A stretch of 64,000 nt of DNA from Corynebacterium coyleae (lineage in GTDB: Bacteria > Actinomycetota > Actinomycetes > Mycobacteriales > Mycobacteriaceae), in the NCBI RefSeq assembly GCF_030408635.1, contig NZ_CP047198.1, positions 1,736,001-1,800,000 of the forward strand, read 5' to 3'. The stretch's first letter is position 1. Every line of letters starts with the position of its first letter. This document shows, piece by piece, positions 39,032-45,919 of this stretch. The translations under genes were made by a program, and so were the position numbers. The notes beneath the pieces are model-generated. The model saw nothing but the letters and a program-made list of their open reading frames with translations, did not search any database and had not been told where the DNA came from.

Positions 39032-39997
39032 GTGAATGCCAACAAGTCCTCCCAAAAGCCGTGGTGGCGCCAACTGCTCAACCCCGGCTGGATCATCGCG
39101 GCGATCGTCGTCGGCATTTTCTCCTACTTTGCCTTCACGTTCCTCGCGCCCTGGCAACTCGGCAAGAACGAACAGTTAGTCGAACGCAACGAACACATCT
39201 CCGCGGCGTTCGACCACGATCCCGAACCGCTGGTGGACCGCCTGCCCGGCACCACGCTCGCCCCCGCCGACGAATGGTCACGTGTGGTCGCCACCGGCCA
39301 CTACACGGGCAACGACGTGTTGCTTCGCCTGCGTTCCGTCGACCGCACCCCTGCGTTCCAGGTGCTCACGCCGTTCACGCTTGACGACGGCCGCACCATC
39401 CTTGTCAACCGCGGCTGGGTCCCCGCCGAAGGCTCCACCGGTGTGCCGGACATCGACGCAGCACCTACCGGCGACGTCACCATCACTGGCATGCTGCGCG
39501 CCGCCGAAGCGACCCACCCGACCGCGCCCATCCACGACCAGGGCTTCGACATGGTCCACTCCATCAACCCCACCCAGGTTGGGGAGCTGACCGGAGTCGA
39601 CGCGGGGGCGGACATGGTCGAGCCGTACCTCCAACTACTCTCAGACCAACCCGGCACCCTCACCGCCATCCCCCTGCCCCAACTCGAAACCGGCAACCAC
39701 CTTTCCTACGGCCTCCAGTGGATCCTGTTCGGCGTCGCCGCCCCCGGCGCCCTGCTCTACTTCCTGTTCTCCGAAAGCCGCGAACGCCGCCGCTACGTCG
39801 AGGAGCAGAAGCAACTGCTTAACGACGACACCGTGGCCGGCAGCGGCCCCGAGCCTTCCCCTGTCCCCGGCGAAGAAACCGCCCCGGCGCCGTCCGCTCA
39901 GACCCCGACTGCGGCTCCTACGCGTTCCCGCCAGCGCTACGGTTCTTCCCGCACCAACCCGTGGGCCAAGGCTTACGATAAGGAACAAGAACGCTAA
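39032..39997 (+). CDS. SURF1 family cytochrome oxidase assembly protein (intact copy)
   Basis: SURF1 proteins assist assembly of haem-copper cytochrome oxidase. The 321-aa protein has an N-terminal helix (about 20-42), the family motifs WQLGKNEQLVERN, LLRLRSVDRTPAFQVLTPF and ILVNRGWVP, a second helix (HLSYGLQWILFGVAAPGALLYF, about 228-250) and a disordered Pro/Ala/Thr-rich tail. GTG 39032 is preferred to GTG 39026 from -10 spacing. The 3' two thirds are duplicated exactly at 42246-42905. Confidence 0.92.
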   Translation: MNANKSSQKPWWRQLLNPGWIIAAIVVGIFSYFAFTFLAPWQLGKNEQLVERNEHISAAFDHDPEPLVDRLPGTTLAPADEWSRVVATGHYTGNDVLLRLRSVDRTPAFQVLTPFTLDDGRTILVNRGWVPAEGSTGVPDIDAAPTGDVTITGMLRAAEATHPTAPIHDQGFDMVHSINPTQVGELTGVDAGADMVEPYLQLLSDQPGTLTAIPLPQLETGNHLSYGLQWILFGVAAPGALLYFLFSESRERRRYVEEQKQLLNDDTVAGSGPEPSPVPGEETAPAPSAQTPTAAPTRSRQRYGSSRTNPWAKAYDKEQER

Positions 39998-40027
39998 CTC
40001 TGTCCCATGGTCTCTGAAGGGGTTTTG

Positions 40028-40423
40028 ATGTCGCTCGATTCCGTCCTCCGCACCCTCGCCGACGCCTTCGTCGTCCCCGCCTCGGGCGTCGAACCTGCCG
40101 ATATTGAAGACGCCGCCTTCGACCACGCCGTCGCCTTCGCCAACCGCCCCTTCGCAACCTTGTCGCTTCTCACCGACCCCGAAGGCCAGCCCCTTTTCGC
40201 CCTGTCCGACGGCGGTACTTTGCCAGCCCGCGCCGGCTTAGCCTGCGCCGCGCTTGGCCACTCTCTCCACGACATCTCCATCGTCCCCGACTCCCCCACC
40301 GCCACCACCGGCTCCGCTCGGGTGCAGTTCTCCGAATGGGACGTCGCAGACGTGGAGTTCGACGGCAACACCCCGGCGTTCGAACTGGGCATCCTCGCCG
40401 CCATCGAGAACCGATCGCTCTAG
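40028..40423 (+). CDS. Protein of unknown function (copy A)
   Basis: This 131-aa soluble protein (MSLDSVLRTLADAFVVPASG...) has no motif I recognise. Its pattern (LFALSDGGTLPARAGLACAALGHSL, then a beta-rich half) suggests a small alpha/beta fold. GAAGGGG lies 5 nt before the ATG at 40028; an in-frame ATG at 40007 lacks a ribosome site. It follows SURF1 by 30 bp and is duplicated with it. Confidence 0.8.
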   Translation: MSLDSVLRTLADAFVVPASGVEPADIEDAAFDHAVAFANRPFATLSLLTDPEGQPLFALSDGGTLPARAGLACAALGHSLHDISIVPDSPTATTGSARVQFSEWDVADVEFDGNTPAFELGILAAIENRSL

Positions 40424-40433
40424 GTACCGGTTC

Positions 40434-40459
40434 GGGTTAAGCGACAAAATGTGTGTCTG
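40434..40459 (+). repeat. 26-bp inverted repeat, left end (copy A)
   Basis: GGGTTAAG-CGA-CAAAATGTGTGTCTG pairs with the right-hand copy at 45761-45786 with 23 of 26 bases identical. It begins 10 bp after the stop of the small gene and is also present in the duplicated segment at 43342-43367. Confidence 0.85.
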
Positions 40460-40698
40460 GATTCGTCGATTTGTTTGAGATGATCGGGGGTTTTCCTGAA
40501 AGTATATGCTCCTGGGGCTTATATCCGCGCCATGGTGACGAAAAACCGGGGGGTGTTCCTATATAGGTTGTCAACTCCGTGGGTGAGGTTGTTGGGGGTA
40601 TGAAGGGCTTCTGCTTCGCCGTGTGAATGTTGTTTTCGGGCATCTCGAGGAGCCGATTGGGCTTGCTGCTCAATCGGCTTGGATGGGAGCTGTTGGTT

Positions 40699-41907
40699 CT
40701 AAGCTGCTGTGACCTCTTGGACTGTGGAGATGTCTCGGTAGAGCTCGCCGCTACGCATCATGGCGAAGAGAACGTTTAGGCGTCGGCGTGCGAGTGCGAC
40801 AACTGCGGCGTTGTGTCTTTTGCCTTCTTTGCGTTTTCGTTCATAGAATTGTCGGGAACGCTCGTGGAATCTGATCGATGCAAAAGACGATTGCCATAGG
40901 GCGTTCTTTAATTTTTTGTTGCCAGCCCGGTTGGGCGAATTCGACATGATGGACGTTCCCGACTGATTCGTCCGCGGTGATAGGCCTGCATAGGACGCTA
41001 GGTGCGCTGCATCGGGGAAGTCGGACATATCGCCAACGGTCATGAGGATCTGCGCGGCGCTACGCGGACCGATGCCGGGCATGGATAAAAGAATCTCGGT
41101 GTGAGGAATGTCCTGGATGAGCTTGAGCACCTGCGCCTCGATTTCTTTACGATGCTCGAGTTTGGCCAATGCATCTTTGGCGGACATTGCTACGCCAAGT
41201 TCGGCGTATTCTGCCCCGGCAATGGACACGGTCTGCCCGTGGATGGCAGCAAGCATGGCATCGATGACAGGCTCAGGATTGCGCGCCCTGTGACTGCGCG
41301 CAAAGGCTGCCAGACGTGCTCTACCGACGCGTCGAATCTTGGTGGGGCCACCGTATTTGGCAAGTAGGTGGAGGATCCACTTGCGATGAATCACCTGTCC
41401 GCGCAGAACATGTTCGAATGCAGGATAGGTTCCCACGAGCGCGGATCGCATCTGGTTAATCAGGCGTGTGTAGGCCCGGGCGAGATCTTCGTCAATACCG
41501 TTGAGCACTTTCAGCTGGATAAAGACTTCCTCAACGCGGTCGACGCTGCGCAAGGCATCCGGAAGTTTAAGACCGGCATGGGCGATGACGTAGGCGTCGC
41601 GCACATCGGTCTTGGAGTTGCCGACGTGGATGCGAGAGAGCTGCCGCATCGCAAGCCCCGGTAGATAGCGAACGTCGGCCCCCATGTCTTGGGCGACTGC
41701 GACGGTTAACCGGCCGATGTTGTTGGGTTGATCGACAATGACAAGAACCGAAGCGTCATCGGCGAGAAATTTGCCGAAGAGCTTGCGTAGTGAGCCTTCA
41801 TGCTGGTTGATGCGTTCGGACAGGACTTGTCTGCCTTGGAAATCGAGGACGCAGGCGTGGTGGAAGTATTTGCCGACGTCCACGCCAATGACGAAGTCAT
41901 AGGCCAT
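40699..41907 (-). CDS. IS110-family transposase (DEDD recombinase)
   Basis: This 402-aa protein has the N-terminal RuvC-like DEDD domain (FVIGVDVGK with the first Asp, and KTDVRDAYVIAH) and the C-terminal Tnp20 domain with the catalytic serine region (MPGIGPRSAAQILM, then YAGLSPRTNQSGTS and NRAGNKKLKNALW). Length and motifs are intact, so it may be active. AGGAGG lies 10 nt before the ATG, directly after a hairpin that could limit translation. Confidence 0.93.
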   Translation of the reverse strand: MAYDFVIGVDVGKYFHHACVLDFQGRQVLSERINQHEGSLRKLFGKFLADDASVLVIVDQPNNIGRLTVAVAQDMGADVRYLPGLAMRQLSRIHVGNSKTDVRDAYVIAHAGLKLPDALRSVDRVEEVFIQLKVLNGIDEDLARAYTRLINQMRSALVGTYPAFEHVLRGQVIHRKWILHLLAKYGGPTKIRRVGRARLAAFARSHRARNPEPVIDAMLAAIHGQTVSIAGAEYAELGVAMSAKDALAKLEHRKEIEAQVLKLIQDIPHTEILLSMPGIGPRSAAQILMTVGDMSDFPDAAHLASYAGLSPRTNQSGTSIMSNSPNRAGNKKLKNALWQSSFASIRFHERSRQFYERKRKEGKRHNAAVVALARRRLNVLFAMMRSGELYRDISTVQEVTAA

Positions 41908-42245: not shown

Positions 42246-42905
42246 GTCGACCGCACCCCTGCGTTCCAGGTGCTCACGCCGTTCACGCTTGACGACGGCC
42301 GCACCATCCTTGTCAACCGCGGCTGGGTCCCCGCCGAAGGCTCCACCGGTGTGCCGGACATCGACGCAGCACCTACCGGCGACGTCACCATCACTGGCAT
42401 GCTGCGCGCCGCCGAAGCGACCCACCCGACCGCGCCCATCCACGACCAGGGCTTCGACATGGTCCACTCCATCAACCCCACCCAGGTTGGGGAGCTGACC
42501 GGAGTCGACGCGGGGGCGGACATGGTCGAGCCGTACCTCCAACTACTCTCAGACCAACCCGGCACCCTCACCGCCATCCCCCTGCCCCAACTCGAAACCG
42601 GCAACCACCTTTCCTACGGCCTCCAGTGGATCCTGTTCGGCGTCGCCGCCCCCGGCGCCCTGCTCTACTTCCTGTTCTCCGAAAGCCGCGAACGCCGCCG
42701 CTACGTCGAGGAGCAGAAGCAACTGCTTAACGACGACACCGTGGCCGGCAGCGGCCCCGAGCCTTCCCCTGTCCCCGGCGAAGAAACCGCCCCGGCGCCG
42801 TCCGCTCAGACCCCGACTGCGGCTCCTACGCGTTCCCGCCAGCGCTACGGTTCTTCCCGCACCAACCCGTGGGCCAAGGCTTACGATAAGGAACAAGAAC
42901 GCTAA
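42246..42905 (+). pseudogene. SURF1 gene fragment lacking the 5' third
   Basis: The segment encodes the SURF1 C-terminal part from the FQVLTPF region onward, identical to the intact gene. The N-terminal helix and about the first 102 residues are missing; the upstream sequence is IS110 DNA. Any product would lack the first membrane anchor. Confidence 0.93.
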
Positions 42906-42935
42906 CTCTGTCCCATGGTCTCTGAAGGGGTTTTG

Positions 42936-43331
42936 ATGTCGCTCGATTCCGTCCTCCGCACCCTCGCCGACGCCTTCGTCGTCCCCGCCTCGGGCGTCGA
43001 ACCTGCCGATATTGAAGACGCCGCCTTCGACCACGCCGTCGCCTTCGCCAACCGCCCCTTCGCAACCTTGTCGCTTCTCACCGACCCCGAAGGCCAGCCC
43101 CTTTTCGCCCTGTCCGACGGCGGTACTTTGCCAGCCCGCGCCGGCTTAGCCTGCGCCGCGCTTGGCCACTCTCTCCACGACATCTCCATCGTCCCCGACT
43201 CCCCCACCGCCACCACCGGCTCCGCTCGGGTGCAGTTCTCCGAATGGGACGTCGCAGACGTGGAGTTCGACGGCAACACCCCGGCGTTCGAACTGGGCAT
43301 CCTCGCCGCCATCGAGAACCGATCGCTCTAG
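42936..43331 (+). CDS. Protein of unknown function (copy B)
   Basis: Identical to the 131-aa gene at 40028-40423, including its GAAGGGG ribosome site. Its normal promoter, if located upstream of the SURF1 gene, is missing here. Confidence 0.75.
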   Translation: MSLDSVLRTLADAFVVPASGVEPADIEDAAFDHAVAFANRPFATLSLLTDPEGQPLFALSDGGTLPARAGLACAALGHSLHDISIVPDSPTATTGSARVQFSEWDVADVEFDGNTPAFELGILAAIENRSL

Positions 43332-43341
43332 GTACCGGTTC

Positions 43342-43367
43342 GGGTTAAGCGACAAAATGTGTGTCTG
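43342..43367 (+). repeat. 26-bp inverted repeat, left end (copy B)
   Basis: Exact copy of 40434-40459; with 45761-45786 it bounds the 2445-bp unit containing the IS1249-like relic and the bacteriocin-like cassette. Confidence 0.85.
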
Positions 43368-43501
43368 GATTCGTCGATTTGTTTGAGATGATCGGGGGTT
43401 TTCCTGAAAGTATATGCTCCTGGGGCTTATATCCGCGCCATGGTGACGAAAAACCGGGGGGTGACAGCAGTGTGTGGTAGGGGCTGGTGTTGGCTTGATC
43501 A

Positions 43502-44677
43502 ATGCCGAAGAACAGACCACGCTGCCAATGCGGTGGGGAAATGAAACGCAACGGTAAGACCTCCGCCAACCGCAGCCGGTGACGGTGCAAAATGTGCGGC
43601 GCTTCCACCACCAAGCAGCTCCCCGATATCACCAACTCCGCTGCCTTCGCAGCATTTATCACCCACCTCACAACCGGTGCGAGCTTGGAAACCGCTGCCG
43701 CCGGAGCAGGATGTCATCCGCGTACGCTGCAACACCGGTTTGAACACTTCTGGCTAGTTGATGTCCCCGATCCCACGATCGGGCACGAAGGCTGGGTCTA
43801 CGACCAGGTCTTTCTTGACGGCACCTACACCGCCGGCGGATGCTTGATTGTTGCTGCCACCTTGGATCACGTCATCGCTTGGCACTGGTGCACACGTGAA
43901 ACCACCCGCGACTACCAACGACTGCTCGAACGTATCCCCGCGCCCCTGATCCCTGTCATTGACGGCGGCCAAGGCGCTGCCAGCGCAATCAAGGCATGCT
44001 GGCCCACAACGAAAGTGCAGCGCTGCCTCGTCCACGCCCAACGCGTGGTGCGCCGGCACACCACCGCACGTCCCCGCACCGATGCAGGACGAGCGATTTA
44101 CCAGATCGCGCTCAACCTCACGAAGATCACCGATCTTGACGAGGCGGCCGCGTGGGGTGCGCAACTGCACGAATACGGCACTATCTACCGTGACTGGATG
44201 AACCAGAAAACGTTCACAACCGACCCGGCGACACGGCAACGCGCCTGGTCATGGACTCATGAACGCACCCGCAAGGCCTACAACAGCCTCAACCACCTAT
44301 GGCGGGGCAACTTACTGTTGGTCTACCTCGCCCCACCCGACGGTGTGCTCGACGCCAGCCGGATCAAAGCCACCAAACAGCCGGAAGGCGGAATCAACGC
44401 CCAGTTGAAACTGCTGGCCCGCACCCACCGGGGAAGATCCGGGAACATCAACGCCGCATGTTGGATTGGTGGCTCTACCTAAAAACGGAACTGCCTGACG
44501 ACCCCGTTGAGATCGCCGGGCAGCCCAACTGGGGTCAGGACTAACTGGCCAAAGTATCCACCCTGACCCGAAACGAGAACCAAGCCGACCACGAAACTTC
44601 GACGACCAGCCTTCTACGAGGGCGCTATCGACACCAACTACACCCACTCAATCGGCATCCAAAAAGGCCACATCTAA
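43502..44677 (+). pseudogene. IS1249-like (IS256 family) transposase relic
   Basis: The reading frame of about 392 codons starts MPKNRPRCQCGGEMKRNGKT (zinc-finger start). It is broken by TGA at codon 27 (43580) where the context (SRSR-stop-RCKMCG) suggests an original Trp. A -1 shift in a G-run near 44450 moves it into the frame encoding EHQRRMLDWWLYLKTELPDD, TAA at 44542 follows NWGQD, and another shift near 44603 precedes AFYEGAIDTNYTHSIGIQKGHI. The central DDE region (FLDGTYTAGG, VIDGGQGAASAI) is intact. At least four lesions make it inactive. Confidence 0.9.
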
Positions 44678-44776
44678 CCCTCGCGACACGCCGAGCTAGA
44701 CACCCTTTTTGACCCTTAACGCTCAAATAGTAGTTATAGAATAGCGGCTCACGCAGGAAGCAAGAATTTGAATATA

Positions 44777-44965
44777 CTAGTCTCTGTCTCGTTCACGGTA
44801 TCTCACCAAGACTACGTACAAAATGCCCGCTAGAGCACCTGTAATCGATAAAATGGGACCTACGGACAAAATCGGATTAGACCACGCAGAAAGTGCTACC
44901 TGAATAATACTCAGGATAACACCTATAGCGATAATGATACCGATGACAACACGTAGCAAGCGCAT
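44777..44965 (-). CDS. Small two-helix membrane protein, candidate immunity protein
   Basis: This 62-aa protein has two hydrophobic helices (about 5-28, VVIGIIIAIGVILSIIQVAL, and 34-54, LSVGPILSITGALAGILYVV) and a charged C-terminus RYRERDRD. It starts 6 nt after the hydrophobic peptide gene and is the last gene of the cassette. Size, topology and position are those of bacteriocin immunity proteins; no family match is recognised. Confidence 0.6.
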   Translation of the reverse strand: MRLLRVVIGIIIAIGVILSIIQVALSAWSNPILSVGPILSITGALAGILYVVLVRYRERDRD

Positions 44966-44971
44966 TTATAC

Positions 44972-45223
44972 CTACTGTGACCAGCAAATTCCACCAGGGA
45001 AAAGTCTAATTCCTCGATTCCACGAACCGCAGATGCCTAAAATGCCAGATTCCGCCGCTAAGACTCCAGCAATAGCGCCAGCAAGAAACCCGCCTACACC
45101 TGTTTCTGCAGTAATTAACGCAGCTAACGCGGCAACACCAGCGCCAGCGGCGTACGCATTCTGGAGTGCAGATGCCGCGCAGCTATTTAGCAAGATACCG
45201 GGATGGTAGCTTTTGGAACCCAT
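44972..45223 (-). CDS. Hydrophobic Cys-containing peptide, candidate bacteriocin
   Basis: The frame encodes an 83-aa product from the ATG at 45223 (AAGGA 4 nt upstream). After a short polar start it is Ala/Gly-rich and hydrophobic (NSCAASALQNAYAAGAGVAA, then GVGGFLAGAIAGVLAAESG) and ends ICGSWNRGIRLFPGGICWSQ. The three Cys, two of them near the C-terminus, could form a disulfide loop. It has no signal peptide. The frame overlaps the end of the 141-aa secreted protein and continues exactly past its stop in the +1 frame, so the two may be one precursor joined by frameshifting or separated by a mutation. Confidence 0.55.
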   Translation of the reverse strand: MGSKSYHPGILLNSCAASALQNAYAAGAGVAALAALITAETGVGGFLAGAIAGVLAAESGILGICGSWNRGIRLFPGGICWSQ

Positions 45224-45608
45224 TCCGTCCTTGACATGCATCGTAAAACTGAATAGCCGGTTCGATAGCATCCGCTTCGCGTTCAAGAATCGCTAGGTCT
45301 GATTCGTCCGCGTCAACATTCCAGCCTTGCGCAAGAAGAGTTCCTGAGAACTCATTCAGTACACCGGAATCCACGTCTGGATCCGACTGAGCTGCTCGAT
45401 AATCAAACCGTGCATGTTCAAAATCAACATACCTGTCCATCGCCCTAAAAGATGCCTCTTCAGCCACGGTGAGGTTCGAATCCTCGGCAAATAACATCTG
45501 CGCCTCGGCGACGTCAATTGGCTTTGCCGTTACCGTCGTAGGGGAGGAGATTCCTAGCGCCGATACCGAAAGTGCAACTGCCAATGCCCTTCTAAAGAGT
45601 AGGCGCAT
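45183..45608 (-). CDS. Secreted acidic pro-protein upstream of the candidate bacteriocin
   Basis: This 141-aa protein has a clear signal peptide (RLLFRR, hydrophobic ALAVALSVSALGIS, cleavage after TVTA) and then an acidic helical region of about 110 residues with one Cys (FYDACQG). GAGGTTAGGA precedes the ATG. The stop TAG follows LPSRYLAK; one base of frame change there would continue into NSCAASALQ of the hydrophobic peptide. A signal peptide, acidic pro-domain and C-terminal hydrophobic Cys peptide is the layout of SdpC-like and halocin C8-like toxin precursors. That comparison is by architecture, not by sequence match. Confidence 0.7.
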   Translation of the reverse strand: MRLLFRRALAVALSVSALGISSPTTVTAKPIDVAEAQMLFAEDSNLTVAEEASFRAMDRYVDFEHARFDYRAAQSDPDVDSGVLNEFSGTLLAQGWNVDADESDLAILEREADAIEPAIQFYDACQGRNGFQKLPSRYLAK

Positions 45609-45760: not shown

Positions 45761-45786
45761 CAGACACACATTTTGAGCCTTAACCC
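45761..45786 (-). repeat. 26-bp inverted repeat, right end
   Basis: The complement of the left ends at 40434 and 43342 with 3 mismatches in 26. It lies 30 bp from the tRNA-Val terminator hairpin. Confidence 0.85.
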
Positions 45787-45812
45787 CAGCCTGCGGACTC
45801 ACACCAAGCTAC

Positions 45813-45843: not shown

Positions 45844-45919
45844 TGGTGCGCCATGACGGGCTCGAACCGCCGACCTACTGGGTGTAAACCAGTTGCTCTT
45901 CCAGCTGAGCTAACGGCGC
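45844..45919 (-). tRNA. tRNA-Val, anticodon TAC
   Basis: The minus strand gives a 76-nt cloverleaf: acceptor GCGCCGT/ATGGCGC, D-arm AGCTCAGCTGGAAGAGC, anticodon loop TTTACAC with TAC, T-arm GGCGGTTCGAGCCCGTC and an encoded CCA end. Confidence 0.97.

What the first reader, a model, noticed from the sequence alone, without database searches (positions are those of the whole stretch)
44777..45608. Unrecognised bacteriocin-like cassette: secreted pro-protein, Cys peptide and small membrane protein
Three tightly packed minus-strand genes in AT-rich DNA encode a signal-peptide pro-protein of 141 aa, a Gly/Ala-rich hydrophobic peptide with three Cys, and a 62-aa two-helix protein. This is the layout of a toxin precursor plus immunity protein. 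I recognise no family, and no SdpA/SdpB-like or ABC export genes are present. It sits in a mobile block, as bacteriocin genes often do.
Basis: partly seen in the sequence, partly recalled or inferred. Interest (0 to 1): 0.85.

Follow-up and report, generated by a model that had tools for sequence, protein, structure and literature searches.

The report
Broken bacteriocin gene beside intact immunity-like gene
A small mobile gene pair in a Corynebacterium genome looks like a secreted peptide toxin against rival bacteria plus its protective membrane protein, and in this genome the toxin gene is broken while the protector-like gene is still whole.

Summary
The open frames are there, but they make two genes, not three. 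The 141-aa "pro-protein" and the "Cys peptide" are the two parts of one gene split by a frame change. Five complete homologues in other Corynebacterium genomes read through the same junction as one frame (207-233 aa): a signal-peptide-like start, a poorly conserved pro-region and a conserved C-terminal region of exactly 87 residues with four cysteines. A short two-helix protein starts 0-20 nt downstream in 7 of 8 loci where this could be seen. The unit is patchy (7 of 242 genus genomes), AT-rich, sits at several unrelated sites, and has no convincing match in the family libraries scanned. In three loci (window, second G214 copy, G118) the precursor is broken or mostly deleted but the small frame is intact; four more genomes show the small protein without a precursor. 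Best reading: an undescribed family of secreted, proteolytically released bacteriocin with an adjacent immunity protein; this strain is probably an immune non-producer. The cassette lies between a damaged mutator-type IS and a third IS end, beside tRNA-Val; the nearest relative examined has an empty site. Activity, cleavage and immunity are inferred, not shown.

The parts
45183..45608 (-). first part of the broken precursor gene: signal-peptide-like start, pro-region and first conserved Cys (CxGxNGFQ block)
   Evidence: HMM match to model positions 10-142; AGAGG-type ribosome site upstream. Signal peptide judged by eye (charged start, hydrophobic core, A-x-A-like end); no predictor was available.
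44972..45217 (-). second part of the same gene in another frame: hydrophobic C-terminal region with conserved Cys 2-4, ending GxCWSQ
   Evidence: HMM match to model positions 136-217; 52-61% identity to three intact homologues and 37% to a fourth.
44777..44965 (-). intact 62-aa two-helix membrane protein, candidate immunity protein
   Evidence: relatives; control with the reversed sequence.
43341..44723 (+). mutator-type insertion sequence with terminal repeats; transposase frame looks damaged (longest frame 43592-44482)
   Evidence: (Transposase_mut E=1.6e-5, above its cut-off), ends, near full-length copies 73-74% identical at three other places in the genome and a partial one.
45762..45787 (-). 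third copy of the IS end, on the far side of the cassette
   Evidence: four matches in the window to a pattern written from these ends, two of them copies of the same left end; 1 match in all in 20 shuffles.
45844..45919 (-). tRNA-Val (tac) bordering the inserted block
40699..41907 (-). IS110-family transposase in the same inserted block

Best explanation
The locus is a two-gene bacteriocin cassette of an undescribed Corynebacterium family. In intact copies the precursor would be exported by Sec, its pro-region would hold the C-terminal region inactive, and a protease outside the cell would release a peptide of about 85 residues that starts near the first conserved Cys, is closed by two disulfides and inserts two hydrophobic helices into the membrane of related bacteria. 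The adjacent two-helix protein would protect the producer by sitting in the membrane and blocking that insertion. In this genome the precursor gene is split by a frame change and the immunity-like gene is whole, so the strain is most likely immune without producing the toxin. Shown: gene structure in homologues, conservation, pairing, patchiness, several broken or missing precursors beside whole small frames, mobile setting. Inferred: Sec export, cleavage site, disulfides, membrane killing, immunity.
For: One frame in 5 complete homologues plus one cut by a contig end. C-region from Cys1 is 87 residues with four Cys in 5 of 5 complete members and 53% mean pairwise identity, against 23% for signal and pro-region, over the 6 members of A4. 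Compared with three of the six homologues (G219, G100, G053), both window parts have lower per-site differences at amino-acid-changing than at silent sites (pN 0.21-0.46, pS 0.77-0.97, silent sites saturated). Two-helix protein 0-20 nt downstream in 7 of 8 loci where downstream DNA is held (G199 lacks it; G219 ends at the contig edge). 7 of 242 genus genomes, 8 loci. Precursor broken or deleted with whole small frame in the window, the second G214 copy and G118 (signal-peptide stub, then the last residues of the precursor, then the small frame); small protein without a precursor in G171, G008, G020, G021. Empty site in the nearest relative examined.
Against: No known family supports toxicity; the structure models are poor. 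No activity data. G199 has the precursor without the small partner. The small proteins are weakly alike (15-28% to the window's, five compared); for G053, G045 and G214 their kinship rests on place, size and topology. The reversed-sequence control reaches E=9.1e-5, so the G118 (2.9e-4) and G100 (3.4e-4) matches rest on their place beside precursor sequence, not on score. No remnant of a precursor was found beside the lone small frames in G171, G008, G020, G021 or the truncated one in G170. The pro-part of the window differs from homologues at more amino-acid-changing than silent sites in raw count (about 135 to 75).
Confidence: 0.72

Rival explanations
1. The frame change is a sequencing or assembly error and the window strain has a working precursor gene.
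For: One genome only; no other strain of the species was seen. Both parts still differ from homologues less per amino-acid-changing site than per silent site.
Against: Two other loci (G214 second copy, G118) carry damage of another kind in the same gene, so loss is not rare; the genome is one contig rated 99.9% complete, though that says nothing about single-base quality.
Confidence: 0.15
2. The secreted peptide is not a toxin but a signal, adhesin or envelope component, and the small protein is its membrane partner.
For: No activity is known; G199 lacks the small partner; no sequence family points to killing.
Against: Patchy presence in 7 of 242 genomes, several unrelated sites, loss of the secreted part with the small frame kept in three loci, and genomes with the small protein only fit toxin and immunity better.
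Confidence: 0.17
3. The window's gene is split on purpose: programmed frameshifting, or separate translation of the C-terminal peptide from the ATG at 45223, which has an AAGGA-like site upstream.
For: ATG 45223 in the second frame with a plausible ribosome site.
Against: Homologues are single frames and need no recoding; the same ATG arises from the conserved C-x-G-R-N-G codons; a peptide started there would lack a signal peptide and the first Cys.
Confidence: 0.05
4. The small protein helps export or maturation rather than giving immunity.
For: Close coupling to the precursor in 7 of 8 loci.
Against: It is kept where the precursor is broken or absent, which an export helper would not need; G199 has the precursor without it.
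Confidence: 0.1

Closest known systems
PAMP (protease-activated antimicrobial peptide) of Propionibacterium jensenii
   Same: Passages of PMC5756557 describe a 198-aa pro-protein with a 27-aa signal peptide, an active C-terminal fragment, and activation outside the cell by proteases.
   Different: The PAMP sequence was not at hand, so no comparison of sequence, cysteines or partner gene was made.
Propionicin SM1 of P. jensenii
   Same: 207-aa precursor with a 27-aa signal peptide (PMC5756557 passages).
   Different: Its sequence was not at hand (one search found no record under the accession I recalled).
SdpC cannibalism peptide of Bacillus subtilis (recalled)
   Same: Exported precursor whose hydrophobic, disulfide-bearing C-terminal peptide is released and acts on the membrane (recalled).
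   Different: The candidate has four conserved Cys and 87 residues, and no SdpA/SdpB-like partner was seen among genes shared between loci. SdpC itself was not compared (the accession I recalled failed).
Lactococcin 972-like class IId bacteriocins, reported in Corynebacterium including C. mastitidis (PMC12188740 passages)
   Same: Secreted bacteriocins predicted in the same genus.
   Different: The Lactococcin_972 model is in Pfam and matched none of the 8 window and homologue precursor proteins scanned.
Orphan immunity genes of E. coli bacteriocins (PMC12546727 passages)
   Same: Immunity genes found beside degraded toxin genes or without any.
   Different: There mostly plasmid-borne and of characterised families; here chromosomal and only inferred.

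Membership tests
Lactococcin 972 family (Pfam PF09683) | match to the family model | tested here: not met
   No match of P0001, P0002 and P0004-P0009 in Pfam scans at E<=5 or E<=1; the model is in Pfam.
SdpC-type toxin | SdpA/SdpB-like maturation genes beside the precursor | tested here: inconclusive
   No such gene is among the neighbours shared between loci, but neighbours were not scanned with SdpA or SdpB models.
SdpC-type toxin | sequence relationship to SdpC | not testable with these tools
   No SdpC model or sequence could be named; whether the scanned libraries hold one was not established.
PAMP / propionicin SM1 | signal peptide, long pro-region, active C-terminal part | tested here: inconclusive
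   The layout fits by reading; cleavage and activity not testable.
PAMP / propionicin SM1 | sequence relationship | not testable with these tools
   Sequences not at hand.
Bacteriocin with adjacent immunity gene (general kind) | small membrane protein directly beside the precursor | tested here: met
   7 of 8 loci with downstream DNA.
Bacteriocin with adjacent immunity gene (general kind) | inhibits related bacteria; partner protects | not testable with these tools
   Needs bench work.

The most novel reading that the evidence does not exclude
A previously undescribed bacteriocin family, found here only in Corynebacterium, with an 87-residue four-cysteine C-terminal toxin region released from a pro-domain, that moves as a bare two-gene cassette into sites such as those beside tRNA and ribosomal-protein genes and repeatedly decays into an immunity-only state, so that the genus carries a record of toxin loss with immunity kept.
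Probability: 0.6. Interest if true: 0.65.

Novelty: new variant of a known kind. Interest (0 to 1): 0.52.

Why it matters
If true it adds a bacteriocin family that the sequence libraries used here do not recognise, in a genus known from human and animal skin and airways. The mix of intact, broken and immunity-only loci makes a question in bacteriocin ecology directly testable: whether immunity genes persist because neighbours still make the toxin.

Full report
What is there. The window lies in a genome of 2.5 Mb in one contig; I take the genus to be Corynebacterium, from the named C. mastitidis relative, which the genus search also returned, and from gene content, not from a record name. On the minus strand, 45183-45608 encodes 141 aa with a signal-peptide-like start, the frame ending at 44972 encodes a hydrophobic Gly/Ala-rich stretch with three Cys, and 44777-44965 encodes 62 aa with two hydrophobic stretches. 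The cassette has 50% GC against 63% for the window.

One gene, not two. A search with the hydrophobic frame over 201 genus genomes found the window's own and four others, in which the match lies in a frame of 208-250 codons without stops. A profile of these four found 7 of 242 genus genomes with 8 loci, the window included. Five loci are complete single frames (G100, G053, G045, G199, G214 first copy); a sixth (G219, which is C. mastitidis DSM 44356) is open up to the contig end. They align through the place where the window changes frame. A profile of the six matches the window in two frames, model positions 10-142 and 136-217, i.e. nearly the whole gene in two pieces. Against three of the homologues both pieces show lower per-site difference at amino-acid-changing sites (pN 0.45-0.46 and 0.21-0.25) than at silent sites (pS 0.77-0.97, saturated), as expected of a gene that was read as protein until recently; in raw counts the pro-part still has more amino-acid changes than silent ones.

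Anatomy of the family. From the first conserved Cys to the end every complete member has 87 residues and four Cys (5 of 5): CxGxNG(F/Y/S)Q, then PPAxL(L/I)xSC, a hydrophobic part, (G/S)xC-type third Cys (CNSWG, CGSWG or CNATG), and GxC(W/E)SQ at the very end. This part is 53% identical on average, the signal and pro-part 23% (15 pairs of 6 members). In the pair G045 and G214 (58% identical) pN is 0.13 in the C-part and 0.36 in the pro-part. A weak AlphaFold model gives moderate confidence to the pro-region only. This is what one expects of a precursor with a loosely constrained pro-region and a tightly constrained active C-terminal peptide.

The small partner. Directly downstream, 0-20 nt after the precursor's stop, comes a frame for a protein of 57-80 aa (129 aa if the open frame of the second G214 copy is taken whole) with two hydrophobic stretches, in 7 of the 8 loci where downstream DNA is held: window, G100, G053, G045, both G214 copies and G118. 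G199 has none; a CAAX-protease-like (Rce1-like) gene stands convergent to it. The small proteins are 15-28% identical to the window's.

Loss of the precursor, retention of the partner. Besides the window, the second G214 copy has an in-frame stop. G118, not among the matches of the precursor search, has a signal-peptide stub, then the last residues of the precursor, then the whole small frame (the remnant's E-value is 7e-4 in a scan of seven stretches). A search with the window's 62-aa protein found 14 of 242 genomes at E<=0.01. Besides the window itself, those above the control floor are G171 (3.5e-10), G170 (6.5e-9; by eye the frame lacks its beginning behind a transposase-like frame), G008 (2.7e-6), and G020 and G021 (4.0e-6 each, same site beside a secA-like gene by eye, so one event). 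G118 (2.9e-4) and G100 (3.4e-4) lie below the floor and are accepted for their neighbours; six weaker ones were dropped. The control with the reversed protein gave 6 of 242 genomes, best 9.1e-5, the rest above 0.008. The G020/G021 pair keeps the small coding sequence 98.5% identical over 204 bases, against 60% position by position for the 120 bases before it (ungapped, so only a rough hint; two amino-acid changes to one silent are too few to test selection). Precursor remnants were looked for and not found beside the small frames of G171, G170, G008, G020 and G021.

Surroundings. Comparing genes predicted in 20 kb of the window and in seven other loci of 5-15 kb, the matches that link loci at unrelated sites are the cassette genes and one ABC-ATPase pair (30% identical over 102 residues, in G045 and G199, 5-7 kb from the cassette; by eye a generic ATPase and an FtsE-like one), which I judge unrelated. 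So no dedicated exporter or modification enzyme was seen to travel with it. G045 and the first G214 copy share one site beside an rpsB-like gene; G053 lies in a ribosomal-protein gene region (names by eye from the translations). In the window the cassette stands between a damaged mutator-type IS (ends at 43341 and 44723) and a third copy of that IS end at 45762-45787, beside tRNA-Val. In the nearest relative examined, G002, the gene that precedes the block is followed after about 290 bp by the tRNA: an empty site. The block also holds an IS110 copy and one side of a 1218-bp duplication (39338-40555 and 42246-43463).

How it probably works. Export by Sec, inhibition or chaperoning by the pro-region, release of the C-terminal part by a protease outside the cell, two disulfides and membrane insertion are inferred from the anatomy and from the precedent of PAMP, a pro-protein of similar layout in Propionibacterium activated outside the cell (PMC5756557, passages). 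Immunity by the two-helix protein is inferred from pairing and from its presence where the precursor is lost; orphan immunity genes, with and without degraded toxin genes beside them, are described for E. coli bacteriocins (PMC12546727, passages).

Against known families. Nothing reached a cut-off in Pfam or NCBIfam; five proteins given to PHROGs and PADLOC gave nothing better than E=0.13; no PDB chain matched by sequence at E<=1. Published genome mining of Corynebacterium lists lactococcin-972-like class IId, linaridin, lanthipeptide and other clusters (PMC12188740, passages); the lactococcin 972 model did not match. SdpC, PAMP and propionicin SM1 were not compared by sequence.

Verdict. A real and probably undescribed bacteriocin-like family, a new variant of a known kind; in this genome the toxin part is broken, so the locus itself is most likely an immunity remnant.

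Noticed in passing
window 39338-40555 and 42246-43463: Identical 1218-bp direct duplication (part of a SURF1-like gene, a following 138-aa gene and the left end of the mutator-type IS) on either side of an IS110 copy.
   Followed up: partly
L019 8270-9232 (-), G199: A CAAX-protease-like (Rce1-like) gene stands convergent to the precursor in the one locus without the two-helix partner; it could be an alternative immunity gene.
   Followed up: partly
window 45223 (-): ATG with AAGGA-like upstream sequence in the second frame; arises from the conserved C-x-G-R-N-G codons and is probably chance.
   Followed up: partly
L054, L055, L056 between the SURF1-like gene and tRNA-Val: The same tRNA-Val site holds about 2-6.5 kb of DNA of unknown content in other relatives (G007, G004, G005), so it may be an insertion hot spot.
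   Followed up: no
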